From an uncultured Opitutaceae bacterium (GTDB lineage Bacteria; Verrucomicrobiota; Verrucomicrobiia; Opitutales; Opitutaceae): 64,000 bases of DNA. This document shows positions 13,648-41,652 of the stretch, one piece after another (position 1 is the stretch's first letter; each line of letters starts with the position of its first letter). Below the pieces are notes generated by a model that did not search any database, was not told where the DNA came from, and worked only from the letters and a program-made list of their open reading frames with translations. Both the position numbers and the translations under genes were made by a program. The stretch lies in NCBI GenBank assembly GCA_951813085.1, contig OX638348.1, positions 2,551,627-2,615,626 on the forward strand, in the 5' to 3' direction.

Positions 13648-13766
13648 AGAACCGAGACCGCTTCCAACATATCAGTGTTTCCGCACTAGTATCATCACTT
13701 CTCAAAGTGTTAATTTATCCTCAGAATAATTACTTCAATGAAAGATAACTGGTTGGACCCCGCAGT

Positions 13767-14590: not shown

Positions 14591-14842
14591 CAGCGCGATC
14601 TCCAGGGCCTTGGTCTTGAGCAGCTGGTCGGCAAGCAGCTTCTTGAGCTCGGTGTTCTCCTTCTCTAGGTCGCGGAGGCGCTGAGCCTCCTTTAGATCCA
14701 TGCCTCCGTACTTGCTCTTCCAGCGGTAGAAGCTCTGCGAGCTGATGCTGCGCCTGCGGCAGATCCCCTCGGTCCGAAGCCCCGTGTCGGCCTCCCTCAG
14801 TATGCGGATTATCTGCTCGGTCGCGCGTCTTGTCTCTTTCAT
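14576..14842 (-). CDS. IS3-family transposase OrfA
   Basis: The 88-residue protein has an N-terminal helix-turn-helix (TEQIIRILREADTGLRTEGI) that would bind the IS ends, followed by a leucine-zipper-like coiled coil (about 48-85). This is the standard IS3 OrfA layout, most like the IS407/IS51 groups. It ends at TGA just past GGGGAAAAAC; OrfB lies in the -1 frame, so a fusion would be made by -1 frameshifting. It differs from OrfA of copy 2 at only a few residues. Confidence 0.9.
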   Translation of the reverse strand: MKETRRATEQIIRILREADTGLRTEGICRRRSISSQSFYRWKSKYGGMDLKEAQRLRDLEKENTELKKLLADQLLKTKALEIALGKNL

Positions 14843-14913
14843 CGATGATGTCCTTTCGTTGATCGACGAAAATCACCTCATCAAAAGTGGGCTAGTTCCC
14901 GGGGTCCCAACCA

Positions 14914-22768: not shown

Positions 22769-22776
22769 ATCGCCCT

Positions 22777-24669: not shown

Positions 24670-24684
24670 GCCGTGCTCCTTGGT

Positions 24685-27642
24685 TTATTGTATCTCAAAA
24701 CTAATGTTGAATAATTCATGGGTGGAGGTTTGCTGCTTGAGCCGTTTTTCCACCATGTCGATTAATTCGTCTTTTTTCTCCTCGATCATCTTTGCCGAGT
24801 CATCATATTCCCGCCACGCCTCATCACGCTTGCCTTCCAGTTTTCGCACCTTCTTCTGCAGTGCTAATCTGTCTGGCAAATTGCCGGTGTTACGGGTTTG
24901 TTTTTTCAATTCCTTGATCTGGTCATCCAGCTCCTTAAGGCTGGTTTTAAGACCGGTGCGCCGATCCTCCGCCCATTTATCCAACTTATCCATTTCTTCA
25001 CTGAAAAAATCGCTATTGTGCTTATCCATGCCCTGCAGGAATTCATGGAATGAATCCTCCACAATGCCACTGAGCAATGCTTCATCCGGTGGGGTGCGAT
25101 AGGCGCTTTCTTCCTTGGCCTGTAGCTTGAATAGTTTGCGTACCACCTCATCGGAGATTTGGTTATCATCCTCATCAGCTGCGGCCAGTATCAGATAGGT
25201 ATTTTCCTCAAAGCTCTTGGTGTGCAATTCTGCGGCACGCACCCATCCGGCTTTTCCGCGCAGATTCTCCAGCACGGTGATTTTATGTGGATAGCTGTCA
25301 TAATCAAAAACAATATGGGTGGCATCCGTCTCCAGTGACTTGGCAGCTTCCAATACCTTTTTACCAAGATCACTGGATGGTTTGTATATCTTGGGCTGCA
25401 ATTTAAGGCGTTTGCGTTCCTGCTTTGACATCATGCTCCAGCGGTCACGCTCATCACGGGTATCAAACCCCACTAACCGATAGGCAAAGGAGCAGTTTAC
25501 TTTCCGCTCATGCCAGTTTGCAGGCTTTTCTATTTCATCCTTTAATGTGCCGAACATCCGGCGTTGTTCATCAAAGTGATATTCACCAAGGAATTGATCT
25601 GAGAATTTTTCAATCAGCACATATTTGGTGAGCAGCCAGAAAATATCGAGCATTTCATCTTTGCGCTCTTCGGCTTGTTTTTTATGGAGCTTCAAACGTC
25701 CATGCACATCTTCATCAAAATTCTCAAACAGCATCTTGCGTGCCTGTGTGACGTGCTCGGTAATCGGTTCATCCAGCTCTTCACGCAGATTATTAAAAGC
25801 GGATTCAATTTCCTCCGGCGTGCGGCAGGTTTCAAAAATATCTGAGATGCGCTTTTCAAAATCAATCCCATCCTCAATGCGGCCCAACACTTCATCGGAT
25901 GCACCAAACACCCCATCGAACAATTGGAATTTATAGCGAAGCAGCTCATAGATGCACTGATCAGCCCAATTCTTCTCATTAAGAAAGTTAATCACCACCA
26001 CATCATGTTTCTGACCATAGCGGTGGCAACGCCCGATGCGCTGCTCTACGCGCTGGGGATTCCATGGCAGATCATAATTCACTAGCAGTGAGCAGAATTG
26101 CAGATTCATACCTTCTGCCGCCGCTTCGGTGGCAATCATCACCTTGGCGTGGTGGCGGAACTGATCTACCAGCGCTTGGCGCATATCAACATCCCGCGCA
26201 CCGGTGATGCGATCCGAGCCATCGTGCTCCTCTTTCCACCCATTATAAATGCTGCGTGCCAGATCATCATTATTCTGGCCGTTGAAGGTAACAATTTGGC
26301 CTTTATAGGCTGGTTGCTGTTCCAAATATTCCCGAAGGTAACGCTGGGTGCGGTTGGATTCGGTGAAGATGATCACCTTTTCCTGTGCGCCTAATTCCTG
26401 CATACGCTCAAAACCAACTTCCAGCGCGTGCAGTAGTTTTATGGCCTTGGTTTCCACGGTGATGGATCGTGCAATTTCAATATAGTGATCAATCTCGGCC
26501 AGCTCTGCTTTTAGCTTTTCTTGATTCACATCCTGATTAAGAATTTTCGGAGGCGTTGCTGATAGCGATTCACTTTCCTCATCATATTCAGAGCCAAGTT
26601 CATTATCGTGCGCGAGCTGGCCAGCGACATTTTCTTCCACTTCTTCACCCTTCTGCAGATCAAGCAGACGTTGGCGGATCGTTTTTAGCGTACCTATAAT
26701 GGCGTAAGTGGATGATGACAGGAGTTTGCGGATAACCAACACCACCAGTTTGCGCTGGGCGGTGGGGATGGAATAAGTGTCGCGCCGCAGGATAAAATCA
26801 GAAAGCAGATTATAGAGGTCTTGCTCTTCTTTGCTGGGCGTGAACGGGATGGTAATTGCTTCACGGTTGGTGTAGCGGATATATTCCAGTACATCACGGC
26901 GGAGTGTGCGATAAACGAACGGTTTCAATCGCTCCTGCAGTTCATGTAGATTCGGCTTTCCGTTGATATAATTATTTTTGAAAGCCTCTTCGCTGCCAAA
27001 GATACGATCATCAATCAGCATGCTGAGGCCGTATAGCTCCATTAAGGAGTTTTGCAGCGGAGTGGCGGTAAGCAGTGCTTTGCGTTTATCCTGCAGAGCC
27101 TCACAGATAGCCTTGCCCATCTTATTATCTTTTTTGTAGACGTTCCGGAGTTTGTGGGCTTCATCAATCACGCACAAATCCCAATCGATACGCTGCAACT
27201 CATCTTTCAATCTGGCCGCAAAATGGAAAGACATGATAATCGCGCCATCAAACATGAGCGGTGCCATCCCATCTTTTTCCATTTTTTGGTACGTTTTGCT
27301 CTCCAGAATCAGGCTGGGCATGCGGAATTTCTCTTCCAGCTCGATTGACCATTGGCAGCGAAGGGATGCAGGGCAGACAATTAGTAAACGGCGTTTATGC
27401 TCTGCCCAATACTGGCAAAGCAGCAATCCAGCTTCGATGGTTTTACCAAGCCCCACTTCATCGGCAAGGATCACGCCCTTGGAAAGTGGAGAGCGCAGCG
27501 CAAAGAGTGCCGCTTCAATCTGGTGAGGATTCAAATCAACGGAGGCTTCCACGAGGGAATATGTCAGACGATCAATCAGGTACGCCGGTTTCTTGGCGGT
27601 CAATTCATGAGCGTAATATTTTGCGTGGTACGGTGTAATCAT
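24685..27642 (-). CDS. SNF2-family DEAH helicase with coiled-coil tail
   Basis: The 985-residue protein has a full SNF2/RapA-type ATPase: DEVGLGKT (motif I, about residue 61-68), DEAH (motif II), LTATPLQNS (motif III) and, in the second RecA domain, EAAAEGMNLQ and the motif VI stretch QRIGRCHRYGQ. The C-terminal third carries a long predicted coiled coil (about 865-965). Such helicases resemble DrmD of class 1 DISARM and other defence-associated SNF2 proteins. Its start overlaps the HTH gene's stop by 4 bp and mod follows after 15 bp, so all four genes are likely one transcript. Role within the system is unknown: DNA translocation or remodelling is the best guess. Confidence 0.9.
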   Translation of the reverse strand: MITPYHAKYYAHELTAKKPAYLIDRLTYSLVEASVDLNPHQIEAALFALRSPLSKGVILADEVGLGKTIEAGLLLCQYWAEHKRRLLIVCPASLRCQWSIELEEKFRMPSLILESKTYQKMEKDGMAPLMFDGAIIMSFHFAARLKDELQRIDWDLCVIDEAHKLRNVYKKDNKMGKAICEALQDKRKALLTATPLQNSLMELYGLSMLIDDRIFGSEEAFKNNYINGKPNLHELQERLKPFVYRTLRRDVLEYIRYTNREAITIPFTPSKEEQDLYNLLSDFILRRDTYSIPTAQRKLVVLVIRKLLSSSTYAIIGTLKTIRQRLLDLQKGEEVEENVAGQLAHDNELGSEYDEESESLSATPPKILNQDVNQEKLKAELAEIDHYIEIARSITVETKAIKLLHALEVGFERMQELGAQEKVIIFTESNRTQRYLREYLEQQPAYKGQIVTFNGQNNDDLARSIYNGWKEEHDGSDRITGARDVDMRQALVDQFRHHAKVMIATEAAAEGMNLQFCSLLVNYDLPWNPQRVEQRIGRCHRYGQKHDVVVINFLNEKNWADQCIYELLRYKFQLFDGVFGASDEVLGRIEDGIDFEKRISDIFETCRTPEEIESAFNNLREELDEPITEHVTQARKMLFENFDEDVHGRLKLHKKQAEERKDEMLDIFWLLTKYVLIEKFSDQFLGEYHFDEQRRMFGTLKDEIEKPANWHERKVNCSFAYRLVGFDTRDERDRWSMMSKQERKRLKLQPKIYKPSSDLGKKVLEAAKSLETDATHIVFDYDSYPHKITVLENLRGKAGWVRAAELHTKSFEENTYLILAAADEDDNQISDEVVRKLFKLQAKEESAYRTPPDEALLSGIVEDSFHEFLQGMDKHNSDFFSEEMDKLDKWAEDRRTGLKTSLKELDDQIKELKKQTRNTGNLPDRLALQKKVRKLEGKRDEAWREYDDSAKMIEEKKDELIDMVEKRLKQQTSTHELFNISFEIQ

Positions 27643-27894: not shown

Positions 27895-28310
27895 CGTTAA
27901 GGAAGTGCACATCGCAATGCTCGCCATTCATCCAAAAACGAGCCTATCGCCCCCATAGGAAACGTGCGCTCCGATGGGCCAGATAATTTGCTCTAGTCAG
28001 GAAGGGGTTTAGCGCATATTTTAGTGCGAGGTGGTTCAGTTGTATTTGAGTCTATCCTCCGCCATTTTAAACTCCGAGACAATCGCCCTCAACGATTGAA
28101 TCATAAAGAGGATTGACGGAATGAGCTCGTAAAGCGGGCCGGCTGGAGAGGGGACACGCGAACGCGTGAAGACGCAGTCCTGAAGGACGTTTGACCACAA
28201 CGAGAGTCCACTAATCCGAGAGAACGCCCTATACTGCCATTGACAGGAGGCCCTTCGATTCTACGTTGATGCGTCGCTGCACAATGCAAGGGCTCATCGC
28301 TCCATAAAAA
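27895..28310. other. Intergenic region before aminotransferase gene
   Basis: No gene is supported. A weak sigma-70-like promoter on the plus strand is present at 28240-28267 (TTGACA, 16 nt, TACGTT), 44 bp before the aminotransferase ATG. The middle of the region (28130-28230) is GC-rich with a short self-complementary stretch (CACGCGAACGCGTG) but gives no recognisable RNA. The boundary between the restriction island and core DNA probably falls here. Confidence 0.4.
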
Positions 28311-29510
28311 ATGTCCCATTTCGATTCCGTAACACAGGCGCCTGCCGATCCTATTCTCAGTATAACTGAGGCATTCAAGGCCGATACCAATCCCGAGAAA
28401 ATCAATCTTAGCGTTGGCGTATTTGTGAACGATGCTGGGATCACTCCAATATTGGACACCGTCCGCGAGGCGGAAAAGCAACTTGCCGAAGCCAGCGTCA
28501 CTAAAAGCTACCTTCCCATGACAGGCAGCCCAAAATTTGCCGCGCTCACCCAGCGATTGTGCTTTGGTGACGCAATCGCCGACGCCTTCGAAGGTCGCAT
28601 CGTCAGCGCCCAGGTTCCTGGGGGAACGGGAGCTCTGCGCGTGGCAGCCGATTTTATCTCTGGAAATTTGGATACGGGTCGCGCATGGCTGAGCAATCCA
28701 ACCTGGGCTAATCACAAGGGCATATTTTCGGCAGCTGGACTCGAGCTTGAAACCTACCAGTACTTCGACGCCTCTACGCTCGGTCTAGACTACACGGCAT
28801 TCATCGAATCGATCAAATCGATCCCCGCCGGGGACGTCGTGGTTTTGCATGCCTGCTGCCACAATCCTACAGGAGCCGACCTTTCGCCTTCCCAGTGGGA
28901 CGAAGTAGCGTCCATCGCCAAGGAGGTCGGTTGGATACCCTTGCTAGATTTCGCCTACCAGGGCTTTAGTGCAGGTATCGACGATGATGCCCATGGGCCG
29001 CGCGCCTTTGCGAAAGAAGGGACACCCGTATTCGTCTGCCAATCGTTTTCCAAGAATATCGGCCTCTACCAAGAACGCGTAGGCGCCCTGCATATCATCG
29101 TGGACTCGGAAGACGCAGCCCGGCGCGTTACCAGCCAAGTCAAAATCGCCATTCGCACCAACTACTCGAATCCTCCCGCGCACGGCGGCTCCATCGTTGA
29201 AACAATTCTCGAAGACCCATCGCTTCGGGAACGATGGGTAGAAGAAGTCGCGTCGATGCGTTCACGGATTGCGACCTTGCGAAAGCAGTTTGTCGAGGCG
29301 CTCGCGGACGCTGGCGTCGAAAGAGACTTCAGCTTCCTAAAAGAGCAGAAAGGCATGTTCTCATTTATCGGCCTAACGAGAGACCAGGCTGTCGAACTAC
29401 GCGAGAAGCACAGCATCTATATCGTCGACAGCGGACGGATAAACGTCGCCGGAATTACGAGCTCCAATCTTCCACGTCTCGTTCGCGTCCTCAAGGAAAC
29501 CCTCAGCTAG
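28311..29510 (+). CDS. Aromatic/aspartate aminotransferase, class I
   Basis: The 399-residue PLP enzyme is of the AspC/TyrB type, transferring amino groups between aspartate or aromatic amino acids and 2-oxoglutarate. Evidence: near-standard length (about 396), N-terminal DPILSITEAFKAD, ACCHNPTGADLS, DFAYQGF and the PLP-lysine segment SFSKNIGLYQERVG, where Lys forms the Schiff base, followed by the substrate Arg region near the C-terminus. It is cytoplasmic. Together with dcd it forms a short core segment between the two accessory blocks, 18 bp upstream of dcd. Confidence 0.93.
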   Translation: MSHFDSVTQAPADPILSITEAFKADTNPEKINLSVGVFVNDAGITPILDTVREAEKQLAEASVTKSYLPMTGSPKFAALTQRLCFGDAIADAFEGRIVSAQVPGGTGALRVAADFISGNLDTGRAWLSNPTWANHKGIFSAAGLELETYQYFDASTLGLDYTAFIESIKSIPAGDVVVLHACCHNPTGADLSPSQWDEVASIAKEVGWIPLLDFAYQGFSAGIDDDAHGPRAFAKEGTPVFVCQSFSKNIGLYQERVGALHIIVDSEDAARRVTSQVKIAIRTNYSNPPAHGGSIVETILEDPSLRERWVEEVASMRSRIATLRKQFVEALADAGVERDFSFLKEQKGMFSFIGLTRDQAVELREKHSIYIVDSGRINVAGITSSNLPRLVRVLKETLS

Positions 29511-29528
29511 TCTGGAAGATCCGCAGCC

Positions 29529-30065
29529 ATGATTCTATCCGACAAAGCCATTCTAGAATCGATCGATAGCGGCGACATCGTTATCGAGCCCTTTTCCCGC
29601 GAAGCGCTCGGGACGAACAGCTACGATGTGCGCTTGAGCAAGCACCTCGCAACCTACGTTTCCGAGATCCTCGACGCGAAAGCGCACAACAAGGTTGAGC
29701 ACTTCGAGATAAAGGACGAGGGATTCGTGTTGCGACCCGGCACAACCTACCTGGGGTCCACTCTCGAGTATACCGAATCGCACAAGCACGTTCCTTTCTT
29801 AGAAGGGAAATCCAGCGTGGGCCGCCTCGGTATCGACATTCACGCTACAGCCGGAAAAGGCGACGTCGGCTTCTGCAACCACTGGACTCTCGAAATTTCC
29901 GTCTCACAGCCCGTCCGCGTCTACGCCGGCATGCCCATCGGGCAGCTCATCTATTTCGATGTACAAGGCAACGTGGAAACACTCTATAATAAGAAGGGCT
30001 CCGCTAAATACAACACGCGCTCCACGCTCCCTCTCGAATCGATGATGTGGAAGAACCAGTTTTAA
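29529..30065 (+). CDS. dcd: dCTP deaminase
   Basis: The 178-residue protein converts dCTP to dUTP, or to dUMP in bifunctional members. Features: ILSDKAI N-terminus, conserved LGTNSYDVRL, and the active-site stretch EGKSSVGRLGIDIHATAG with the nucleotide-binding Ser-Ser-Val-Gly-Arg. The HATAGKGDVGF form, instead of the enteric HVTAHRIDPGW, is nearer to bifunctional Dcd-Dut-like sequences, but this needs experiment. The start is ATG 29529. The next block's integrase gene begins directly downstream, so the 3' end of dcd marks an accessory boundary. Confidence 0.93.
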   Translation: MILSDKAILESIDSGDIVIEPFSREALGTNSYDVRLSKHLATYVSEILDAKAHNKVEHFEIKDEGFVLRPGTTYLGSTLEYTESHKHVPFLEGKSSVGRLGIDIHATAGKGDVGFCNHWTLEISVSQPVRVYAGMPIGQLIYFDVQGNVETLYNKKGSAKYNTRSTLPLESMMWKNQF

Positions 30066-30303: not shown

Positions 30304-31434
30304 GTGCAATTTGTCGAGGAACTGAAGGACGCTCAGTCCTACGATGATCGCGAGGAGATACGTTCCTTGGGTCGTTTGCTCAAATCGAAATTCGCGCTAA
30401 TCGAATGCCAGGAGAAATTGGATACTTGGGGTATCGGTTGGAAGGATGTCTTCGATTTTTACGAGGAGCATGGAGCGTCAAATCGCGACATCAACATCAC
30501 TATCAAACAGGGCGTTGATATATTCTGCGACCACAAGAGACGGGATCGATTTGTTTCAAAACAGTACCTGCGTCATCTTCAGGTTTTTTCATTTCGTCAT
30601 TTAAAAGAACATTTTTGGGAGGAAACTCTTTTGAAGACAATCTCTCGTCAGAAATTCGAAAGTTATCTTCGAAGTCTCAAGGTCGGAGTGGTTAGCAAAA
30701 ATCATATTATCACAACCACCAAGACTCTCTTCAATGTCCTCGTCGAACAAGGACACTTGGGGATTAATCCGATCGAGAAAATCAAACACATTCCGCTCCC
30801 GCGAAAACTGAACCATTATCAAATCTTAAAGATTTCTGAGGTTCGTTCTATTCTGAATCAAGCAGTGAAGGATCAGGAGTTTGAAATCCTAACCGTTGTG
30901 ATTTTAGTACTGTTCTGCGGAGTTCGCATCGGTGAGGCGATGAAGATGAAATGGGAGGATATCCGATACTATGACAAGTCGGTGGATGTAACAGAGGGAG
31001 TTTCAAAAAAGACAGGTCATCTGCGTCCTAGGAATCCACCAATACCAGACAATGCGATGTGTTGGTTGAGGTTCAATACCTTCACGCGAAAAAAACGTTT
31101 TCGGATCAATACAAAGTCTGCCTCTTTTTTCCAGACACGACTTCGAAGGACTATCAAACGATCAGGCGTCGCGAAGATCGAGAAGAACGTCCTACGTCAC
31201 ACGTTTGCATCCTATTCAGTAAATTTCCATGGACTGACTGAAACGGCAGAGCGCATGGGGCACTATCGCTCCACGCAAGTCCTGAAAGACTACGACGCAT
31301 CTCGAACAACAAGGATCGAGGCAAAGAGATACTTTGATTTGTATCCAAAGGTCTCAGATATTCCTGATCACCTATCGGAGAAATTCAGACCGTTGGTTCT
31401 TCAGGATTTAGCGAAGAGAAAAACTGAGACCTAA
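30304..31434 (+). CDS. Tyrosine recombinase (integrase), N-terminus possibly frameshifted
   Basis: The GTG-started frame gives 376 residues with a SAM-like core-binding domain (about 60-170) and a catalytic domain: Arg in GVRIGEAMKM, H-x-x-R-like LRHTFAS, then MGHYRSTQV and Tyr nucleophile in LKDYDAS. Sense in the same frame continues upstream without a start (KISERKNPSGSISYRIHVGD). ATG 30150 plus an A8 run (30156-30163) would join it if one base were dropped, giving MPKK then EPPSPL. So the true protein is probably about 50 residues longer and depends on the A8 length or on slippage. Probably the integrase that brought in the type I R-M block. Confidence 0.8.
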   Translation: MQFVEELKDAQSYDDREEIRSLGRLLKSKFALIECQEKLDTWGIGWKDVFDFYEEHGASNRDINITIKQGVDIFCDHKRRDRFVSKQYLRHLQVFSFRHLKEHFWEETLLKTISRQKFESYLRSLKVGVVSKNHIITTTKTLFNVLVEQGHLGINPIEKIKHIPLPRKLNHYQILKISEVRSILNQAVKDQEFEILTVVILVLFCGVRIGEAMKMKWEDIRYYDKSVDVTEGVSKKTGHLRPRNPPIPDNAMCWLRFNTFTRKKRFRINTKSASFFQTRLRRTIKRSGVAKIEKNVLRHTFASYSVNFHGLTETAERMGHYRSTQVLKDYDASRTTRIEAKRYFDLYPKVSDIPDHLSEKFRPLVLQDLAKRKTET

Positions 31435-31503: not shown

Positions 31504-33051
31504 ATGAGCGCAGACTTTAAACAAACCCTCTGGAAGACAGCGGACAAACTCAGAGCGCAGATGGATGCTGCTGAGTACAAACACATCGTCCTTGGTCTGA
31601 TCTTCCTCAAGTACATCTCAGACACCTTCGTCAAACAGCAAGAAAAGGTGAAGAGCATGGTCTCTGATCCCTCCTCGGAATACTTCATCAGTGAAGATCC
31701 TGCAGAGTACGAAGAAGAGTTGGAGGAACGGGACTACTACACTCAGGACAACGTGCTCTGGGTTCCGCAAAAGGCGCGCTGGGAAACACTCAGGTCGCAG
31801 GCGAAACAACCGGACATTGGCGCATTGATTGATGGCGCAATGACCGCTATCGAAAACGAGAACGCCACACTGCGAGGGAAGTTAGACAAACGATTTGGTC
31901 GGGCGCAGTTGGGTCAGGGTATTCTGGGTGAGTTGATCGATTTGATCTCCACTATCGGATTTGCGGACAAGTACGATTCATCAGACCTTCTTGGTGAAGT
32001 GTATGAATACTTCCTAGGTCAGTTCGCATCTGCGGAGGGAAAGAAGGGAGGGCAATTCTATACTCCATCTCATGTGGTTAAGACTCTTGTTGCGGTGCTG
32101 GCGCCACACGAAGGTCGTGTCTATGATCCTTGTTGCGGTTCTGGTGGAATGTTTGTTCAGAGCGAAGAGTTCGTGAAGGCGCACGGTGGTCGCGTTGATG
32201 ACATCTCTATCTACGGACAAGAGAGCAATCCCACCACTTGGCGACTTGCGGCAATGAACCTTGCGATTCGGGGTTTCGCTGCAGACTTGGGTAAAGAACC
32301 TGGCGACACCTTTGCTCGCGATCAATTTCCAGACCTGAAGTTCGACTACATCATGGCGAATCCGCCCTTCAACATCTCTGATTGGGGTGGAGAGAAGTAC
32401 GAGGGAGATACTCGTTGGCAGTTTGGAAGACCACCCGTTGGAAATGCGAACTACGCATGGTTGCAGCACATGTTGTGGAAGTTGCGACCGGGCGGTCAGG
32501 CAGGGGTTGTTCTTGCTAACGGTTCGATGAGTTCCAACACGGGTGGTGAGGGTCAGATACGTGAGGCGATGGTGAGAGGCGACGTGGTTGAGGTCATGAT
32601 CGCGCTGCCAGGTCAGTTGTTTCTCAATACGCAGATTCCCGTTTGCCTTTGGTTTCTTACTAACGACAAGACGGCGAATGGGCGAGACCGTAGAGGCGAG
32701 ACTCTGTTCATTGATGCTCGTCAATTAGGGACGATGGAAACTCGTGTTCTTAAGGTCTTCAAGGATGAGGATATCGCCGGAATCGCAGATACAGTTCAGT
32801 CATGGAAGACGGGTGACGGATACGAGGACGTTGCGGGATTCTGCAAGTCAGCGTCACTGGAAGAGATCGAAAAGAACGGGTTTGTTCTGACTCCGGGCAG
32901 GTATGTTGGCGCCGCAGAGTCAGAACGGGACGGAGAAGATTTCAATGAAGCACTCTTTCGACTGCTATCTCGTTACACAGAAATTCGAGAAAGAAGTGTG
33001 TCTCTTGATCAAAAAATAACGTCGTCGCTAACGTCACTTGCCAATGACTGA
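31504..33051 (+). CDS. hsdM: Type I R-M methyltransferase subunit HsdM
   Basis: The 515-residue HsdM has the N-terminal helical domain (FKQTLWKTADKLRAQM), SAM-binding DPCCGSGG at 208-215 and the N6-adenine catalytic NPPF at 286-289. It methylates adenine in a bipartite site set by HsdS, working as an M2S complex, and joins HsdR to form the R2M2S nuclease. The downstream hsdS ATG overlaps the stop by 8 bp (ATGACTGA). The gene is intact. Confidence 0.96.
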   Translation: MSADFKQTLWKTADKLRAQMDAAEYKHIVLGLIFLKYISDTFVKQQEKVKSMVSDPSSEYFISEDPAEYEEELEERDYYTQDNVLWVPQKARWETLRSQAKQPDIGALIDGAMTAIENENATLRGKLDKRFGRAQLGQGILGELIDLISTIGFADKYDSSDLLGEVYEYFLGQFASAEGKKGGQFYTPSHVVKTLVAVLAPHEGRVYDPCCGSGGMFVQSEEFVKAHGGRVDDISIYGQESNPTTWRLAAMNLAIRGFAADLGKEPGDTFARDQFPDLKFDYIMANPPFNISDWGGEKYEGDTRWQFGRPPVGNANYAWLQHMLWKLRPGGQAGVVLANGSMSSNTGGEGQIREAMVRGDVVEVMIALPGQLFLNTQIPVCLWFLTNDKTANGRDRRGETLFIDARQLGTMETRVLKVFKDEDIAGIADTVQSWKTGDGYEDVAGFCKSASLEEIEKNGFVLTPGRYVGAAESERDGEDFNEALFRLLSRYTEIRERSVSLDQKITSSLTSLAND

Positions 33052-34291
33052 TCGCGCAACGGTCCCTTTGTCTGAGGTTGCAGATGTAACTGGAGGATAT
33101 GCATTCAAGAGCAAAGAATATGTACCAAGTGGTCACTTCATCCTACGAACGCTGAATATTTCCGACCAAGGCAGGATAGATAAATCTAGTGCGGTGTTCC
33201 TCTCACAGGAAGATGTCAATAAATACTCTAAATTCTCTCTCTCAGCGTTCGACACGGTCTTCGTTAGGGTCGGATCGCCTGGCAAGACAGGGATAGTAAC
33301 GACTTCAGACTTACCTGCATTGCTCAACGACAATATGTGGAGAATTCGAGCAAAAAAAGGAAAGTGTGATCCACGTTTCTTGCATTACTGCGTTTTGACC
33401 AACAAGCGAAAAATCGAGGTTTTTGCCTCTGGCAGCGCTCAAAGTTTCCTGAGGCTCGATGATTGTCGAGCTATGTTGGTCGAAGTTCCACCCCTGGCAG
33501 ACCAAAAAGCAATCGCCCACATCCTTGGCGCCCTAGACGACAAGATCGAACTCAACCAGAAGATGAACCAGACTCTTGAGGAGGTCGCCAAGGCAATCTT
33601 CAAGTCATGGTTTGTGGACTTCGATCCTGTGCGAGCAAAGGCAGAGGGTCGCCCCACAGGTCTTCCGCCCGAAATCAGCGATCTGTTTCCGAATGAGTTG
33701 GTGGATTCGGAGATTGGAGAGATTCCGAAGGGGTGGTCAGTCTTTACTCTGGGCGATCTAGTCACCCCAAAAAAGGGGAAGTCGATAACGAAGAAAAAAG
33801 TAATTGAAGGCAGTGTGCCAGTGGTCGCAGGAGGGTTGTCTCCCGCCTATTACCACAATACAAGCAACGTAAAAGCGCCAGCAGTAACTGTAAGTGCATC
33901 GGGTGCGAATGCTGGGTTTGCGAGACTCTATAACAAAGATATTTGGGCGTCTGATTGCTCCTTCATCAGCGAGGAACAGACCCCTTTCGTCTTCCTCTGG
34001 TATGTCTTCCTAAAGATTCATCAAGAAAAAATTTATCACATGCAGCAAGGGGCGGCACAACCGCATATTTATCCTTCTGATCTTATGCGTCTTCAATTAG
34101 CGTATCCAGAATCTGATGAATTATGGTGTCGAGCGTTGGATTTGATTGCACCAATGTTTCTTCGGATAGGTAACGCTGAGAAGGAGAGCGAGACGTTATC
34201 CGAACTCAGAGACACACTTCTTCCAAGACTCATCTCTGGCGACCTCCGAATTCCTGACGCTGAGACGTTCCTTGAGGAGGCGGGCATCTGA
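33044..34291 (+). CDS. hsdS: Type I R-M specificity subunit HsdS
   Basis: The 415-residue specificity subunit has two target-recognition domains: TRD1 about 1-150 and TRD2 about 235-370. They are joined by conserved helical spacers (DKIELNQKMNQTLEEVAKAIF and the C-terminal SETLSELRDTLLPRLISGDL). ATG 33044 is chosen over an upstream TTG at 33038 because it overlaps the hsdM stop. It sets the DNA sequence recognised by both methylation and cleavage complexes. hsdR starts within its stop codon (TGATG). Confidence 0.95.
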   Translation: MTDRATVPLSEVADVTGGYAFKSKEYVPSGHFILRTLNISDQGRIDKSSAVFLSQEDVNKYSKFSLSAFDTVFVRVGSPGKTGIVTTSDLPALLNDNMWRIRAKKGKCDPRFLHYCVLTNKRKIEVFASGSAQSFLRLDDCRAMLVEVPPLADQKAIAHILGALDDKIELNQKMNQTLEEVAKAIFKSWFVDFDPVRAKAEGRPTGLPPEISDLFPNELVDSEIGEIPKGWSVFTLGDLVTPKKGKSITKKKVIEGSVPVVAGGLSPAYYHNTSNVKAPAVTVSASGANAGFARLYNKDIWASDCSFISEEQTPFVFLWYVFLKIHQEKIYHMQQGAAQPHIYPSDLMRLQLAYPESDELWCRALDLIAPMFLRIGNAEKESETLSELRDTLLPRLISGDLRIPDAETFLEEAGI

Positions 34292-37200
34292 TGGCGGTGG
34301 TAACCGAGGATCAGGTTGAACTGCAGAGTATCGACTGGTTCAAGGATCTTGGTTACCAGTATCAGTGCGGGTATGACATCGCGTACGATGGCGCGACACC
34401 CGAGCGGTCTGACTATCGCTCTGTCATTCTCAAAGATCGTCTTCTTTCTGCGCTAACACGCATCAATCCACAGATTCCTCGTTCAGCGGTAGATACTGCA
34501 CTGTCGCAACTGATGAATCCTAACATTCCCGCGCTGATGTCCTGCAATCGTCAGGTGCATTCATGGTTAACCAAGGGAGTGAAAGTAACCTATCGCGAAG
34601 GTAACCAAGAGGTCGGCAAACAACTCAAGGTCATCGATTTTGAGAATCCGGAGAACAATGATTGGTTGGTGGTGAATCAGTTCACCATTCATGGGCAGAA
34701 CCATAATCGCAGACCGGATGTTCTAGTCTTCCTTAATGGTCTTCCTCTCGCGGTTATCGAACTCAAGAACGCAGCAGATGAGAACGCAGATATCTGGGCA
34801 GCGTATAACCAATTACAGACCTACAAGAACGACATTCCCGATCTCTTTAACTACAATACGTGTCTCGTCATCTCAGATGGCATCTTCGCGCGTCTGGGTT
34901 CGCTGTCCGCAAAGGAGGAACGTTTCAATCGTTGGAGAACCATTGATGGCGTCGAAGTAGACCCGCTCGGTCAGCACCGCGAATTGGAGACTCTTATCAA
35001 GGGTCTTTTCAATAAGGAGATCTTTCTCAGCTACCTGCGATACTTCTGCATTTTCGAGGAAGACAAGACGGTCATCAAAAAGATCGCAGGCTACCATCAG
35101 TTCCATGCGGTTCAGGCGGCAGTGGAAAGTGTTGTGAGCGCATCAGGCGTCTCTGGCACGAAGAAAGGTGGAGTGGTATGGCACACGCAAGGTGCGGGCA
35201 AAAGCATCGAAATGGCGTGTCTAGCAGGTCGTCTGATTGCTGAACCTCGTCTTGGGAACCCGACTCTTGTAATGGTGACGGACAGACAAGACCTAGATGG
35301 TCAGTTGTTCGGAGTCTTTGCGAATGCGGGCGACCTTCTGGGCGAGACACCAAAACAGGCGAACTCTCGGGTGGAACTCAGAGAGCACCTGATGAATCGT
35401 CCATCGGGAGGAATCATCTTCACCACCATTCAGAAATTCGGTTTAGACGCAGACGAAGACAAGTTTCCCGTTCTGACTGACCGTCACAATATCGTGGTCA
35501 TTGCGGACGAGGCGCATCGAACTCAGTACGGTTTCAAGGCGAGGATCGACAGCGAAAGTGGAACGATCAAGTACGGTCTCGCGAAGTCACTCAGAGACGG
35601 TTTGCCCAATGCGACCTTTCTTGCGTTCACCGGAACGCCCATTTCTCAGGATGGCAGAGATACTCAGGCAGTCTTTGGTAGCTACGTTTCTGTGTATGAC
35701 ATAAAGCAGGCGGTAGAGGACGGCGCAACGGTTCCAATCTACTACGAGTCTCGACTGGCGAAGATAGATCTCAATCAGTCCGCACTCCCGACCATTGATG
35801 AAGAGGTAGAGGACATACTTGATAGCGAAACCGCAGACGAACGCGTAAAAGAGAAGGCGAAGAGTCAGTGGTCTGCACTAGAGGCGATCGTTGGCACGGA
35901 TGCGCGTCTTCAAGAAGTTGCGGAAGACCTGATCAATCATTACGAGACTCGCGGTCAGACTCAACCGGGCAAGGCAATGATCGTCGCAATGTCACGAGAC
36001 ATCTGCGTTCGTCTCTACGACAAGATCATTGAATTTCGACCTGATTGGCGCTCAGACGACCATACGCAGGGCGCAATCAAAGTCGTGATGACCGCATCTG
36101 CATCTGATAAGGCGCATCTACAACCTCATCACACCAGCAAGTCGCAAAAGAAAGACTTGGAGAAACGATTCAAAGATCCAGAAGATCCGCTGAAGATCGT
36201 GATCGTTCGCGACATGTGGTTGACCGGATTCGATGCGCCGTGTCTCGCGACCATGTACGTAGACAAACCGATGCAGGGCGCGAACCTTGCACAGGCGATT
36301 GCTCGCGTGAATCGTGTTTTCAAAGACAAACCAGGCGGTCTGGTAGTGGACTACATCGGTATCGCCCCTCAACTCAAGGAGGCGTTAGCAACCTACAGCG
36401 CCGCGAAAGGAAAAGGCAGACCGACAATCGATTCCAGCGAGGCGTTGAGGATCCTCAAGGAGAAGATACAGGTCGCAAGAGACCTACTGCATCCTGTCGA
36501 TTGGAAGGAGTTCAAGGCCAAGGCGCTGTTACTCATTCCTGAGTGCCTTGATCATATTCTTGATCAAGAAGACGGAAAACGCAGATACGCGGACACCGTA
36601 CTTCAGATGACCAAGGCATTCGCGCTTTGCGGGACTCTGGACGAGGCGCTGGAACTATCACCCGAGGTCGCGTTCCATCAGGCAGTTCGCGCACCCTTGA
36701 TCAAGGGAGATAATCCTGACGGCAAGAAGACTGACGTGAACTACGAACTGCAGCAGTTGGTTTCGCAGGCAGTCGTGGGCGATGGAGTGGCAGACGTTTT
36801 CAAATTAGCGGGTTTAGATACACCCGACATTTCAATTCTATCCGAAGACTTTTTGGCAGAGGTCTTGAAGATGCCACACAAGAACCTCGCGGTGGAACTT
36901 CTTCAGCGCCTGATCAAGGACGAGGTGAAGACCAAGTTCCGAACCAACGTAGTCAAGCAACGCAAGTTCAGCGATATGTTGGAGAAGTCTCTTGGCAAGT
37001 ACGCGAATCGAGCGATTGAGGCATCACAGGTGATTGAGGAACTCATCGCGATGGCGAAACAGCTTCAAGAAGACCTTGCACGAAGAGAAAGTCACAACCT
37101 GACCGACGAGGAAGAGGCGTTCTACGATGCGTTAGCGAAAAACGAGTCTGCGTCCGAGTTGATGAGCGAGGAAGTTCTCGTGGAGATGGCACGAGAAGTC

Positions 37201-37410
37201 GCAAAGAAACTGCGGGGAAATCTCACAGTGGATTGGGCAGTTCGAGACAGCGTTAGGGCAAAACTGAGAATCCTTATTCGGACTCTTTTGAGAAAGTACA
37301 AGTACCCTCCTGATCAGCAGAAAGACGCAGTTGAGATGGTGTTGAGGCAGGCAGAGGTTATCTCTGAGGACTCGACAAAAGAAGTGGTATCAAGACAGTA
37401 TAAAAGTTGA
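34291..37410 (+). CDS. hsdR: Type I restriction endonuclease subunit HsdR
   Basis: The 1039-residue motor-nuclease subunit has an N-terminal PD-(D/E)xK domain (Asp143 in RRPDVLV, E157-L-K159), SF2 helicase motif I TQGAGKS (299-305), DEAH (406-409), TGTPI (motif III) and ARVNRVF (motif VI). A helical C-terminal region (about 850-1039) binds HsdM. It translocates unmethylated DNA and cuts at a distance. The gene is intact and starts in the hsdS stop codon. A DUF4011 helicase remnant follows after 38 bp. Confidence 0.96.
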   Translation: MAVVTEDQVELQSIDWFKDLGYQYQCGYDIAYDGATPERSDYRSVILKDRLLSALTRINPQIPRSAVDTALSQLMNPNIPALMSCNRQVHSWLTKGVKVTYREGNQEVGKQLKVIDFENPENNDWLVVNQFTIHGQNHNRRPDVLVFLNGLPLAVIELKNAADENADIWAAYNQLQTYKNDIPDLFNYNTCLVISDGIFARLGSLSAKEERFNRWRTIDGVEVDPLGQHRELETLIKGLFNKEIFLSYLRYFCIFEEDKTVIKKIAGYHQFHAVQAAVESVVSASGVSGTKKGGVVWHTQGAGKSIEMACLAGRLIAEPRLGNPTLVMVTDRQDLDGQLFGVFANAGDLLGETPKQANSRVELREHLMNRPSGGIIFTTIQKFGLDADEDKFPVLTDRHNIVVIADEAHRTQYGFKARIDSESGTIKYGLAKSLRDGLPNATFLAFTGTPISQDGRDTQAVFGSYVSVYDIKQAVEDGATVPIYYESRLAKIDLNQSALPTIDEEVEDILDSETADERVKEKAKSQWSALEAIVGTDARLQEVAEDLINHYETRGQTQPGKAMIVAMSRDICVRLYDKIIEFRPDWRSDDHTQGAIKVVMTASASDKAHLQPHHTSKSQKKDLEKRFKDPEDPLKIVIVRDMWLTGFDAPCLATMYVDKPMQGANLAQAIARVNRVFKDKPGGLVVDYIGIAPQLKEALATYSAAKGKGRPTIDSSEALRILKEKIQVARDLLHPVDWKEFKAKALLLIPECLDHILDQEDGKRRYADTVLQMTKAFALCGTLDEALELSPEVAFHQAVRAPLIKGDNPDGKKTDVNYELQQLVSQAVVGDGVADVFKLAGLDTPDISILSEDFLAEVLKMPHKNLAVELLQRLIKDEVKTKFRTNVVKQRKFSDMLEKSLGKYANRAIEASQVIEELIAMAKQLQEDLARRESHNLTDEEEAFYDALAKNESASELMSEEVLVEMAREVAKKLRGNLTVDWAVRDSVRAKLRILIRTLLRKYKYPPDQQKDAVEMVLRQAEVISEDSTKEVVSRQYKS

Positions 37411-37448: not shown

Positions 37449-38040
37449 ATGGCGAGCATAGCATCATTACTCGAAGACGCAAGAAGGCGACTAGTTGAAA
37501 CAGGGACGAGGAATAGACTTATCCACTTCAACAGAAAGACTTCGAGAGGGTACCTTCTTAATATTATTTAATGAACGAGCGGACGACATCTTTAACATTT
37601 TAAGGCGAAATGGTAAAAAGATGTCTTTTGTTGGAAGGGGTGAAGATGAGGGCGAAGAAAGTGATGATATTGTCTTTCATCAAATCGATGATGAAGAACG
37701 ATACACTGACTCAATGCTTGAGACTCCATTATCGACTGATGGACTCCAAAAGTGCCTCTTAAAGTTACACAGAAATGCAAGAATTGCCGAAGAAGAGCAG
37801 GGAATAAATATCCTCTTCCTCTCTGTGGGTTTCCTTCGATGGTACGAGGACGAAAAATCAGAATTCCTCAGAGAATCACCTCTCATTCTCTGTCCAGTAG
37901 AATTAGTCAGAAATAAGAAGTCTTCCACTTTCAACATAGTTTGCAGAGATGACGATATAGTAACCAATCTTTCCTTACAAGAGAGATTGAAAAACGATTT
38001 CGGAATATCCCTGCCAGAGATTGATGACTCAGAGGATTGG
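37449..38040 (+). pseudogene. DUF4011-type superfamily I helicase, 5' fragment
   Basis: ATG 37449 opens a frame reading MASIASLLEDARRRL, then ETGTRNRLIHFNRK, the typical N-terminus of DUF4011 helicases. It stops at TAA 37569-37571. A one-base shift just there gives LNERADDIFNILRR and a further 150 residues of the family's N-terminal region up to the IS boundary at 38040. So the gene has one frameshift and lost everything after about codon 195; full-length relatives exceed 1000 residues and often accompany type I R-M operons. The helicase core is not found elsewhere in the window. Confidence 0.8.
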
Positions 38041-38057
38041 TGGTTGGACCCCGCAGT

Positions 38058-38969
38058 TTAGCCCGGTCTCAATGAGAGATTCCCGACGGGTTTCTTGTTG
38101 TTGGGCTTGGGCTTAAGCTGCCTGGGGTGGAGATCGCCCGAAGGGCGGTCGGAGCCGCAGGCAGGCTGGATTTGCCTTGTGGCAAACTCGCTGGGCGTTA
38201 GCGCGCCTGGCGATCCATGGGGCCTATGATTGCTGCAGCAGTCCTTCCAGTCCGCGAAGATCACGCGCGATTCGCTGAGCGTGCAGATCATCTCGCGGTC
38301 GAGGCGTTCCTCGCGAAAGCGGCTGCTGAAGCTTTCGGCGTATCCGTTCCGCCAAGGGCGGCCCGGATCGATGCATAGAGCCTCGATCCCGTTCTCGGCA
38401 AGCCAGCCCTGGATGGCCTTGGCGATGAGCTCGGGCCCGTTGCCCGAGCGGATGCATTCGGGAGCCCCATGCTCGCGGATGGCCTCCTGCAGCAGGGCCA
38501 GCGCGTCGGAGGCCTTGATCGCCCGGTCGGCATGGATGCAATGGCGCTGGCGAGCGCATTCGCCTATCAGGTCGAAGGCCCGCAGCCTGCCTCCCCGCTG
38601 GGCGTAGTCCGAGACGAGGCCCCAGGCCCGGACGCGGTTGCGGCGAAGCGCCTTCCGCGGAAGCCCCGCGCAGAGCCCCTGCCGCCGCCTGCGAGGGCGG
38701 CGAGGCGGAACCTGCAGCCCCTCCTCCCTGCGGACGCGCTGGACCAGCTTCTTGTTCGCGCGGTAGCCAAGCGTCGGATGCTCCCCCGGAAGGCGGACGA
38801 TCTCCGGCTCCAGCAAGCGCTTCCCCTCGGGCTTGGGCTTCGGAAGGTAGCGGAGCGTCGAGCGGCTGATCCCCAGCCATCGGCAAACGGCTCTCCCGGA
38901 ACGCGACAGCGCGGACTGGACCTTCGCCGCAATCCCGCGCTGGCGCTCCGGGCTCAGAGGTTTTTCCCC
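38058..38969 (-). CDS. IS3-family transposase OrfB (catalytic Asp residues substituted)
   Basis: OrfB, read in the -1 frame relative to OrfA, has an HTH_21-like N-terminus and an rve/DDE integrase core (KASDALALLQEAIREHG and NGPELIAKAIQGWLAENG as landmarks). Positions that are catalytic Asp in relatives are Gly here: WGLVSD instead of WDFVSD, and RSGNGPE instead of RSDNGPE. The third residue, Glu in NGYAESF, is kept. The frame is otherwise intact. The substitutions predict loss of transposition activity, yet two copies exist, so either movement preceded them or an active relative acted in trans. Confidence 0.88.
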   Translation of the reverse strand, partial: GEKPLSPERQRGIAAKVQSALSRSGRAVCRWLGISRSTLRYLPKPKPEGKRLLEPEIVRLPGEHPTLGYRANKKLVQRVRREEGLQVPPRRPRRRRQGLCAGLPRKALRRNRVRAWGLVSDYAQRGGRLRAFDLIGECARQRHCIHADRAIKASDALALLQEAIREHGAPECIRSGNGPELIAKAIQGWLAENGIEALCIDPGRPWRNGYAESFSSRFREERLDREMICTLSESRVIFADWKDCCSNHRPHGSPGALTPSEFATRQIQPACGSDRPSGDLHPRQLKPKPNNKKPVGNLSLRPG

Positions 38970-39220
38970 AGCGCGATCTCCAGGGCCTTGGTCTTGAGCA
39001 GCTGGTCGGCAAGCAGCTTCTTGAGCTCGGAGTTCTCCTTCTCCAGGTCGCGGAGGCGCTGAGCCTCCTTCAGATCCATGCCTCCGTACTTGCTCTTCCA
39101 GCGGTAGAAGCTCTGCGAGCTGATGCTGCGCCTGCGGCAGATCCCCTCGGTCCGAAGCCCCGTGTCGGCCTCCCTCAGTATGCGGATTATCTGCTCGGTC
39201 GCACGTCTTGTCTTTTTCAT
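38954..39220 (-). CDS. IS3-family transposase OrfA
   Basis: This 88-residue OrfA has a helix-turn-helix N-terminus and a C-terminal leucine-rich coiled coil. It ends just after GGGGAAAAAC, and OrfB lies in the -1 frame from that point, the standard IS3 arrangement for a frameshifted OrfAB fusion. It differs from the copy 1 OrfA at a few residues (K3 for E3, E for T in the coiled coil). Confidence 0.9.
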   Translation of the reverse strand: MKKTRRATEQIIRILREADTGLRTEGICRRRSISSQSFYRWKSKYGGMDLKEAQRLRDLEKENSELKKLLADQLLKTKALEIALGKNL

Positions 39221-39291
39221 CGATGATTTCCTTTCGTTGATCGACGAAAATCATCTCATCAAAAGTGGGCTAGTTCGCGGGGTCCCAACCA

Positions 39292-39749
39292 CATCCTTCG
39301 CGATCCTCTGAAGATTCGGCATTAAGGGCTCCCCTTGGTACTCCACCGAGAGGCAAAACCCTTCAACCAGATTCCATCTGCAACAAGACCACGTTTTTCG
39401 ACTGAAAGGAGTCTCTGCTAGGAGCTCCTCTTTCGATCTGTCGTTGATCCAGGAATTGAGAAAATGGGGTCAAGTCAACGCCCTCTATGGCCAACTTTTC
39501 AGAAAGAGACGACACTACGGTCCAGACGTCATATAGAACGTAACCGAAAATGCCCAGTTCACGAACAATCTGGCGATTCTCATTTCTATACTTGATCAGT
39601 CTCCAGTCGCGTCCTGCCAGCGCTATCGCTACAAATGCCGCAGCTACAAGCGCAATTCCAATCCAATGCCGCTTTGTAGTTGGCTTTCCTGTTTCCCGCA
39701 ATGTTTCCAAACTGTCGCAAACCCTCCTGGATAGCGGCCCCAGGGACAA
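39292..39749 (-). pseudogene. LTA synthase-like membrane sulfatase-fold protein, truncated at both ends
   Basis: From TTG 39749 the frame encodes one membrane helix (WIGIALVAAAFVAIAL), a linker and the start of the alkaline-phosphatase-superfamily domain (NVVLLQMES, the metal-site strand of LTA-synthase-type phosphoglycerol transferases). A frameshift follows at about 39370; in the shifted frame sense continues LVEGFCLSVEYQGEP, then MPNLQRIAKD right up to the IS end at 39291. The other expected transmembrane helices at the N-terminus are missing, since yidD's stop lies only 21 bp upstream. The catalytic domain beyond the IS is gone. Confidence 0.7.
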
Positions 39750-39770
39750 GTCCGTTTTTCGTGCCGTTGC

Positions 39771-40049
39771 CTAACTCAAGTCGGAGTCAGATGATCGTTT
39801 GCTAGGAACGGGATCATACCCGGATCCTCCCCAAGGATGGCAACTTAGCACGCGTCGAAATGAATAGTATAGAGCCTCTCTGAATCCGAGCTCCCGGAAG
39901 CACTGAATCGCATAGTGAGAGCATCTGGGTTGATAGCGGCAACCGGAATTTGGCCCAAAGATGGCATACTTTAGGGGCGACAAAAGTAGTTGATAGAGTC
40001 GAATGGCGCCAATGGCTAACCATGCGGCTCCTTTGCTGAGTTTTCTCAT
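39771..40049 (-). CDS. yidD: Membrane protein insertion efficiency factor YidD
   Basis: The 92-residue protein has the family signature LSPLKYAIFGPNSGCRYQP, CSHYAIQCF and CHPWGGSGYDPVP. YidD is a small inner-membrane-associated protein that helps YidC insertion. The start overlaps the stop of ribD by 4 bp (ATGA), an unusual pairing since yidD more often sits with rnpA and yidC. Confidence 0.95.
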   Translation of the reverse strand: MRKLSKGAAWLAIGAIRLYQLLLSPLKYAIFGPNSGCRYQPRCSHYAIQCFRELGFREALYYSFRRVLSCHPWGGSGYDPVPSKRSSDSDLS

Positions 40050-40519
40050 CCCGAGCGCTCCCCTTCAGGAGCCGTCTCCCTTCCCTCGTATTCCGGGTTT
40101 AGATCAATGCAGGCCTGTAGCAATACATTGGAGACCACATTCAATCCCGCATCCCGCAGAATTTTTAGCCCGTTCCCTGAGTGCGATCCAGTAGGGTCAA
40201 TGGCTCCGACTACCACATTCTTCAAGCCAGATTCAATGATCGCCTCGGTGCAGGCGCCTGTTCGGCCTTTGGTCGAGCACGGCTCTAGAGTGACGTACAA
40301 AGTCGCGCTCGATTTTGGTTTCCGACCCAGCGACTCCAGCGCGATTCGCTCTGCGTGGGGGCCCCCATCTCGCTCAAAGCATCCAACGGAAACGATTTCC
40401 CCTTCCTCTACGATTATCGACCCAACGCGTGGATTGGGACGGGTCAGCTTCGGATCCGCTAAATTCGCCTGAGCGATCGCGGCGCGCATAAAATGTTCGT
40501 GATGCGTTAAGTCGTTCAT
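40046..40519 (-). CDS. ribD: Riboflavin deaminase RibD, deaminase domain only
   Basis: The 157-residue protein matches the N-terminal deaminase of RibD: PNPRVGSIIV, zinc ligands in PHAER and LEPCSTKGRTGAC. It would deaminate 2,5-diamino-6-ribosylamino-pyrimidinone phosphate in riboflavin synthesis. The usual C-terminal reductase domain is absent; the protein ends after the deaminase fold and is followed at once by yidD, so the reductase must be a separate gene or a different function applies. The start at ATG 40519 is divergent from the nitroreductase gene. Confidence 0.88.
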   Translation of the reverse strand: MNDLTHHEHFMRAAIAQANLADPKLTRPNPRVGSIIVEEGEIVSVGCFERDGGPHAERIALESLGRKPKSSATLYVTLEPCSTKGRTGACTEAIIESGLKNVVVGAIDPTGSHSGNGLKILRDAGLNVVSNVLLQACIDLNPEYEGRETAPEGERSG

Positions 40520-40609
40520 CCGATTCCGGGCATCCTATTGAATGCCGCATTCACTGCAAGCCCGTGACCACGGAGCGACAAGCGAATTCGGGGCGGGATA
40601 GTTTGTTTT

Positions 40610-40638
40610 TTGTAGCCTTTGGCGATTCTCTATATACT
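40610..40638 (+). promoter_or_regulatory. Sigma-70-like promoter before nitroreductase gene
   Basis: TTGTAG (40610-40615), 17 nt, TATACT (40633-40638). The expected transcription start is only a few bases before ATG 40652, so the message may be nearly leaderless. Confidence 0.4.
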
Positions 40639-40651
40639 AGGCTATGCGCTT

Positions 40652-41215
40652 ATGAAGCGTAGCCCCGAAACGATAGATCTCCTTCTGCAACGTCGATCCC
40701 AGCTAGCGGGAAAGCTCGTTCCTCCCGGACCTACCGAAAAGGAACTCGAAACGATTCTGACCTGCGGTACGCGCGTCCCCGATCATAAGGGGATCTCGCC
40801 GTGGCGGATCCTGGTCGCTGATCGGTCAACCCAGGACATTCTGCATGCGAAGCTGCCAGAGCTGCACGAAGGCGCTCCCGCAAGCCTCGAAAAGACACTG
40901 AGCAAAGAAGCCAAAACCGCGCCCTTGCTATTGATCGTCTCATCCAGCACCACATCGGATCGGGCGCCGCGAAACGAGCAGTTGCTCTCAGGGGCAGCCG
41001 TTTGCCAGAATATCATTGTAGCTGCCGCGGCTCTCGGATACAGGAGCCAATGGCTCACCGAATGGTTCGCCTACAACAACAGCGTCAAAGCTCTATTGGG
41101 GATCCCCACAGGGGAGGAAATTATCGGGTTCTTGTACATCGGCAGCGAAGAATCGCCGCCCAAAGAGCGGCCAAGGCCCCCGCTCTCCTCCATCGTCTCA
41201 AAGCTAGAGCTCTAG
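40652..41215 (+). CDS. Nitroreductase family protein
   Basis: The 187-residue flavoprotein is of the nitroreductase fold, closest to the short YdjA-like group: LLLQRRSQLAGKLV N-terminus (FMN phosphate contact by Arg), GTRVPDHKGISPWRI and the QNIIVAAAALGYRSQWLTEW region. Likely FMN-dependent and NAD(P)H-using; physiological substrate unknown. ATG 40652 is chosen; the frame extends to TTG 40619, but this would lie upstream of the promoter's -10. Confidence 0.9.
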   Translation: MKRSPETIDLLLQRRSQLAGKLVPPGPTEKELETILTCGTRVPDHKGISPWRILVADRSTQDILHAKLPELHEGAPASLEKTLSKEAKTAPLLLIVSSSTTSDRAPRNEQLLSGAAVCQNIIVAAAALGYRSQWLTEWFAYNNSVKALLGIPTGEEIIGFLYIGSEESPPKERPRPPLSSIVSKLEL

Positions 41216-41232
41216 CTCGCCTTGGAATCGGA

Positions 41233-41652
41233 CTACCGATTAGAAAGGCAAAGCTCAGCGTAAGCCTTTATTCGCTTGCGCACATTGGTCAGGCCGTTTC
41301 GCCGATTAGGCGACAAGTGCTGCGTAATCCCAACTTCCGCTAGGAAATCCGGCTCCAGCCCGATCACGTCTTCCGGGGTTTCGTCGCTGTACAATTCGCA
41401 CAGCAAGGCTGCCGTTCCTTTGGTGATGGCCGCATCGGAATCCGTATGGAAGTAGCATTTCCCTTCCTTGAATTCCGGAAAGATCCAAAGCTGCGACAAG
41501 CACCCTTCGATCAGAAAGGTATCGACCTTGTACGCCTCGGATAAGGGCGGGTGCCCTTTCGCTCGATCGATAATGTAGGCAAAGCGCTCGAAATGATCCT
41601 CGAAAGGCATCAGCTCCTCCACTATTTGGTCCCTCTTTTCCTGAATGCTCAT
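41233..41652 (-). CDS. sufE: SufE-like Fe-S cluster assembly protein
   Basis: The 139-residue protein stimulates SufS cysteine desulfurase by accepting persulfide sulfur. The active-site Cys is in IEGCLSQLWIF (Cys51), and the family's FKEGKCYFHTDSDAAITKG follows. ATG 41652 is used; the frame continues far upstream (to 42177) but that part is antisense to the methyltransferase gene. No suf operon lies beside it. Confidence 0.93.
   Translation of the reverse strand: MSIQEKRDQIVEELMPFEDHFERFAYIIDRAKGHPPLSEAYKVDTFLIEGCLSQLWIFPEFKEGKCYFHTDSDAAITKGTAALLCELYSDETPEDVIGLEPDFLAEVGITQHLSPNRRNGLTNVRKRIKAYAELCLSNR

What the first reader, a model, noticed from the sequence alone, without database searches (positions are those of the whole stretch)
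37449..39749. IS copy 2 sits between two truncated genes with no target-site duplication
Left: DUF4011 helicase 5' fragment ends exactly at the IS. Right: LTA-synthase-like gene's readable sense ends at the other IS edge. A simple insertion would leave halves of one gene and a short duplication. Instead two unrelated genes are cut, indicating an IS-mediated deletion or recombination that removed the helicase core and the LTA-synthase catalytic domain.
Basis: partly seen in the sequence, partly recalled or inferred. Interest (0 to 1): 0.5.

Follow-up and report, generated by a model that had tools for sequence, protein, structure and literature searches.

The report
Mobile element marks a lost segment
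A small jumping DNA element sits at the scar of one deletion that cut away the end of a phage-defence gene, a whole neighbouring gene and most of an enzyme gene; this is an ordinary, well-documented kind of genome damage.

Summary
An IS3-type element (window 38041-39291, 1251 bp) abuts a DUF4011 helicase cut at about residue 200 of about 1540, and an LtaS-like gene cut just inside its catalytic domain. The flanks share 0 of 4 bases at the expected duplication.

Same-genus relatives settle what happened. Three of them carry yidD - LtaS-like gene - ~500-aa gene - dcd - aminotransferase. In the window dcd and the aminotransferase lie 9.2 kb away, beyond a lower-GC integrase/type I restriction island ending in the helicase. 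The missing pieces (helicase 3' end, ~500-aa gene, LtaS-like 3' end) are contiguous in the inferred ancestral order, and none was found elsewhere in the one-contig genome. So one contiguous deletion of at least about 6 kb, bounded by the IS, is the best reading; inversion or translocation is disfavoured.

Adjacent deletion versus recombination between two IS copies cannot be decided here. Both genes also carry frameshifts. The event is of a known kind (IS150 adjacent deletions without duplications; PMC11708052, abstract and passages).

The parts
28311..29510 (+). aminotransferase class I/II gene, ancestral left neighbour
   Evidence: Pfam; 70-75% protein identity to G001, G004, G005 at the syntenic place
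29529..30065 (+). dCTP-deaminase-like gene (dcd); DNA homology with relatives ends at its stop, 30064-30065
   Evidence: Pfam DCD; synteny
30304..31434 (+). tyrosine recombinase (integrase), left end of inserted island
   Evidence: Pfam Phage_integrase
31504..33051 (+). hsdM, type I methyltransferase
   Evidence: Pfam N6_Mtase, HsdM_N
33038..34291 (+). hsdS, type I specificity subunit
   Evidence: Pfam Methylase_S, PADLOC Specificity_I
34291..37410 (+). hsdR, type I restriction subunit, open over 1039 aa
   Evidence: Pfam, PADLOC REase_I 1150 bits
37449..38040 (+). 5' fragment (about 200 of about 1540 codons) of a DUF4011 helicase, PADLOC PDC-S37 type, frameshifted near 37569
38041..39291 (-). 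IS copy 2, IS3-type, 1251 bp, TGGTTGG...CCAACCA ends; transposase reads on the minus strand
39292..39749 (-). 5' fragment of an LtaS-like (sulfatase superfamily) gene, frameshifted near 39370, cut just inside its catalytic domain
39771..40049 (-). yidD-like gene (name from recall of the family), ancestral right neighbour; coordinates read from the translation
   Evidence: sequence; synteny
40046..40519 (-). deaminase gene, ancestral right neighbour
   Evidence: Pfam dCMP_cyt_deam_1; synteny

Best explanation
A foreign island (integrase, hsdM, hsdS, hsdR, DUF4011 helicase) entered between dcd and the ~500-aa gene. An IS3-type element came to lie in the helicase, and one contiguous deletion then removed everything from the IS edge to about codon 135 of the LtaS-like gene: about 4.0 kb of helicase, whatever ended the island, the whole ~500-aa gene and about 0.9 kb of the LtaS-like gene. 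Shown: the flanking synteny, the cuts at the IS edges, and that the missing pieces were not found in the genome. Inferred: the order of events, that it was one deletion, and that the IS drove it. Most likely mechanism: an IS adjacent deletion (about 50%), next recombination between two same-orientation IS copies, one in each gene (about 35%).
For: Three of three same-genus relatives whose contig spans the interval (G001, G004, G005) have yidD - LtaS-like - ~500-aa gene - dcd - aminotransferase. In G005 DNA homology to window 28236-30065 and 39285-41496 is separated by 2.4 kb, against 9.2 kb here. In the own genome (1 contig, 4.85 Mb, 97% complete) the LtaS-like C-terminal part gives only weak hits in other frames of the sulfatase superfamily, the ~500-aa gene gives none, and the helicase core gives only an intact 1965-aa paralogue at 40%. 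Sensitivity: the LtaS-like fragment itself was found at 38%, and the ~500-aa genes of relatives detect each other at 35-41% and more. A second IS copy shows the same: the esterase cut at copy 1989504 lacks its first ~316 residues, and these were not found in the genome.
Against: No genome with the island and the intact right side was found, so the pre-deletion state is inferred. The island could have arrived already truncated, or together with the IS. Genes could lie in the unassembled ~3%. No perfect duplication exists at any of 26 copies, so its absence here says little by itself. The transposase of this copy lacks two conserved acidic residues, so it would have needed help in trans, or else homologous recombination.
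Confidence: 0.85

Rival explanations
1. Inversion or translocation by recombination between IS copies: the missing halves still exist elsewhere, joined to other IS copies.
For: IS copies look heavily recombined: informative site pairs are four-gamete incompatible in 210 of 315 (under 100 bp apart) to 598 of 803 (400 bp or more apart). Copy 2 is a mosaic: its first 120 columns are closest to copy 2693098 (1 mismatch), columns 400-900 identical to copy 259520.
Against: Missing helicase, LtaS-like and ~500-aa sequence were not found in the genome. Both sides of the locus belong to one ancestral neighbourhood. Matches of 4 bases between left and right flanks of different copies are 8 of 1044 pairs, against about 4 expected at 1 in 256, and the best candidate swap was refuted by an orthologue.
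Confidence: 0.05
2. Deletion by homologous recombination between two same-orientation IS copies, one in the helicase and one in the LtaS-like gene. This gives the same end product as the best explanation and is a mechanism within it, so the confidences are not additive.
For: High copy number, mosaic copies and four-gamete incompatibility, and a transposase that looks catalytically dead.
Against: Needs two independent insertions. Mosaicism is genome-wide, so it is not specific to copy 2; recurrent mutation can also give incompatible site pairs.
Confidence: 0.35
3. Assembly artefact: two unrelated stretches were joined through the repeated IS.
For: A repeat longer than 1.2 kb lies exactly at the junction; frameshifts nearby could be base-call errors.
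Against: The sequence beyond the island and the sequence right of the IS are ancestral neighbours in three relatives, which a random chimeric join would not give.
Confidence: 0.05

Closest known systems
IS150 (IS3 family) adjacent deletions in the Lenski long-term experiment, PMC11708052 (abstract and search passages read)
   Same: IS3-family element at the edge of a large deletion, no target duplication (14 of 14 IS150 deletions there)
   Different: There the insertion was seen before the deletion; here it is inferred. The element here lacks conserved catalytic residues and none of its 26 two-ended copies has a perfect duplication.
PADLOC PDC-S37 single-gene candidate defence helicase (DUF4011-AAA-MTES_1575-DUF3320), related to Hhe and NCBIfam ProA
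   Same: The fragment matches model positions 41-199 of 1550 with 162 bits
   Different: Only about the first 13% remains, and it is frameshifted, so it is not expected to work
LtaS / sulfatase superfamily
   Same: The fragment and its intact relative match the LtaS model; the relative matches Pfam Sulfatase
   Different: 147.6 bits for the intact relative against a cut-off of 970, so LTA synthase is a superfamily label, not a function

Membership tests
IS3 family insertion sequence | integrase-core (rve) transposase | tested here: met
   Pfam rve and rve_3
IS3 family insertion sequence | score over the NCBIfam IS3 transposase cut-off | tested here: not met
   NF033516 112.6 bits against a cut-off of 160; the copy is degenerate. 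It is therefore called IS3-type, not a member.
IS3 family insertion sequence | two overlapping frames orfA/orfB joined by a -1 frameshift | tested here: inconclusive
   orfA in frame 2 and orfB in frame 1 overlap in copy 2; the G003 copy likewise has two frames; frameshifting itself not tested
IS3 family insertion sequence | intact DDE triad | tested here: not met
   25 of 26 copies read SGNGPE at the second Asp; 14 of 14 copies that keep the first-Asp region read WGLVSD; the G003 relative has WAWDFVSD and SDNGPE. DDE assignment of these motifs is from recall.
IS3 family insertion sequence | 3-5 bp target duplication (range from recall; 3 bp for IS150 in PMC11708052) | tested here: inconclusive
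   0 of 26 exact duplications of 3 or more bases; one reconstructed insertion shows exactly 4 extra bases, GCGC/GCAC; weak genome-wide signal only in the 4-bp register, P about 0.013
IS-adjacent deletion | sequence next to the IS missing relative to the ancestral order | tested here: met
IS-adjacent deletion | IS present at the same place before the deletion | not testable with these tools
   no same-species strain was found or held
PDC-S37 / DUF4011 defence helicase | DUF4011 followed by helicase core, nuclease and DUF3320 | tested here: not met
   DUF4011 present; the rest absent here but present in intact relative L102
Lipoteichoic acid synthase | score over the LtaS equivalog cut-off | tested here: not met
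   intact relative 147.6 bits against 970

The most novel reading that the evidence does not exclude
A catalytically dead IS3-type element reached at least 26 copies by help in trans, and its copies now act mainly as breakpoints: none keeps a perfect duplication, at least two mark deletions of host genes, and several others lie beside cut genes, so the element erodes this genome long after it lost its own transposase.
Probability: 0.2. Interest if true: 0.35.

Novelty: new member of a known kind. Interest (0 to 1): 0.2.

Why it matters
It explains two broken genes as one scar, adds a third lost gene, and shows how an inserted defence island can be trimmed together with host DNA. It is also a caution: a missing target duplication is not by itself evidence of a deletion when no copy in the genome has one.

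Tried and rejected
Swapped flanks: the left flank of copy 2694348 and the right flank of copy 1989504 share GGAC and join in frame. I took this as a sign of IS-IS exchange (note), but the G007 orthologue reads a different sequence before the junction, so the match is chance. Flank matches of 4 bases among different copies are 8 of 1044 left-right pairs, against about 4 expected.

That this IS never duplicates its target: rejected. At copy 4098911 the joined flanks of a secretin gene carry exactly 4 bases more at the junction than seven orthologues, read as GCGC/GCAC with one mismatch. In the 4-bp register the 26 copies show 39 matching bases against 28.8 in shuffled pairings, P about 0.013. 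Five register lengths (2-6) were tested, so this signal is weak.

That copy 3176717 interrupts a single Hpt gene: rejected, because the right side reads as part of another gene (family named from recall; no Pfam run on that side).

The fused 398-aa frame of copy 2 as an OrfA-OrfB fusion: rejected, because its N-terminal part is not in the orfA frame. A PDB sequence search with it gave nothing significant. No tRNA was found in the window as an island attachment site. A plasmid search with the island found 181 records at 60-90% identity, none covering 80% of the query.

Dropped rows: of 29 left and 36 right IS ends located, 3 left and 10 right ends were not paired into a two-ended copy and were left out of the 26-copy counts. 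Pfam was run on 20 flank open frames chosen from those listed.

Full report
What is there. The IS is 38041-39291. Its ends were fixed by comparing the copies in the own genome. The genome is one contig of 4.85 Mb, 97% complete, and gives 64 DNA matches to the IS. On the left, the last gene of a type I restriction operon (hsdM, hsdS, hsdR, then a DUF4011 helicase) is cut after about 200 of about 1540 codons, the length being taken from relative L102, a Flavobacteriaceae MAG contig at 61% identity. On the right, an LtaS-like gene is cut about 30 residues after its sulfatase-fold domain begins. Both fragments also carry a frameshift, so neither is expected to work even without the IS.

What was there before. 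Same-genus genomes G001, G004 and G005 carry a nitroreductase-like gene (name from recall), deaminase, yidD, LtaS-like gene, a ~500-aa gene (no Pfam family in the G005 copy), dcd and aminotransferase in one block. G002 shows the LtaS-like gene and the ~500-aa gene close to its contig start, so the rest cannot be seen. In the LtaS-like fragment search 6 of 38 genomes including the own one matched; G007 matched only at a contig start, and the other same-genus genomes (G003, G006, G008, G009, G010) gave no match and say nothing about the order. In the window the right part of this block (LtaS-like, yidD, deaminase) and the left part (dcd, aminotransferase) are both present, 9.2 kb apart instead of 2.4-3.2 kb. 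The extra DNA is an island of 48% GC between flanks of 54-55%, starting with a tyrosine recombinase.

What is missing. In window order, the missing parts are the helicase 3' end, the ~500-aa gene and the LtaS-like 3' end. They form one uninterrupted interval, so a single deletion explains all. Searches of the own genome found no second half: for the LtaS-like protein (best hit is the fragment itself; 36 other hits are weak matches in other frames, read as the sulfatase superfamily), for the ~500-aa protein (no hit), for the helicase core (only an intact paralogue at 3.04 Mb).

The missing duplication. None of 26 two-ended copies has an exact duplication of three or more bases; shuffled pairings give 0.47 by chance. 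The G003 copy shows none either. The one site reconstructed from orthologues (copy 4098911, seven genomes) shows four extra bases, GCGC/GCAC, so the element probably duplicates 4 bp. Over all copies only the 4-bp register shows an excess of matches, P about 0.013, and five registers were tried. Copy 2 has 0 of 4 matches, in line with a lost flank, but two other copies also have 0 of 4.

Other copies. Copy 1989504 carries the last ~82 residues of an esterase-like protein (name from recall) whose first ~316 residues were not found in the genome. Genes cut at other copies include a BD-FAE esterase, an FGGY kinase and an Hpt protein, and an HDOD protein at a single-ended copy. In the 20 flank frames given to Pfam no complementary half was seen; frames broken by shifts could have been missed.

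Mechanism. PMC11708052 (abstract and passages) reports that 14 of 14 IS150-associated deletions lacked a duplication and arose next to an IS already in place. That is the closest precedent. Against a purely transposase-driven event here, the transposase has Gly for the second Asp in 25 of 26 copies and WGLVSD in 14 of 14 copies that keep the first-Asp region, while the G003 copy keeps both (motif assignment from recall). A search of the own genome with the G003 transposase returned 72 matches, mostly at the places of this same family, and no separate intact relative was noticed; their catalytic residues were not all read. Recombination between copies is plausible: copies are mosaic and four-gamete incompatibility is common. 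I put adjacent deletion at about 50%, IS-IS recombination at about 35%.

Verdict. Real, explained, and of a known kind. Interest is low to modest.

Noticed in passing
window 13750-14913: IS copy 1, an internally deleted copy (86-bp gap shared by 11 of 26 copies), also without duplication; the MFS gene to its left seems broken by a frameshift.
   Followed up: partly
all 26 two-ended IS copies in G000: Second catalytic Asp of the transposase is Gly in 25 of 26 copies, as if a dead master copy had been amplified in trans.
   Followed up: partly
L053 (G000:C1:3851000-3854000), also L051, L055, L057, L064, L065: Eight IS right ends are followed by nearly the same 30-base sequence, which reads as the 3' end of a related IS3 orfB; in L053 three such units stand in tandem.
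   Followed up: partly
L050 (G000:C1:3038000-3050000): An intact 1965-aa DUF4011 helicase frame lies between two IS copies of this family in opposite orientation.
   Followed up: no
window 19835-27642: A second restriction/defence cluster: DrmD-like SNF2 helicase, N6_N4 methyltransferase and ResIII/RE_endonuc protein.
   Followed up: no
L049 (G001), about 13000-13280: A relic of the same IS family lies next to the aminotransferase in relative G001, close to the same locus.
   Followed up: no
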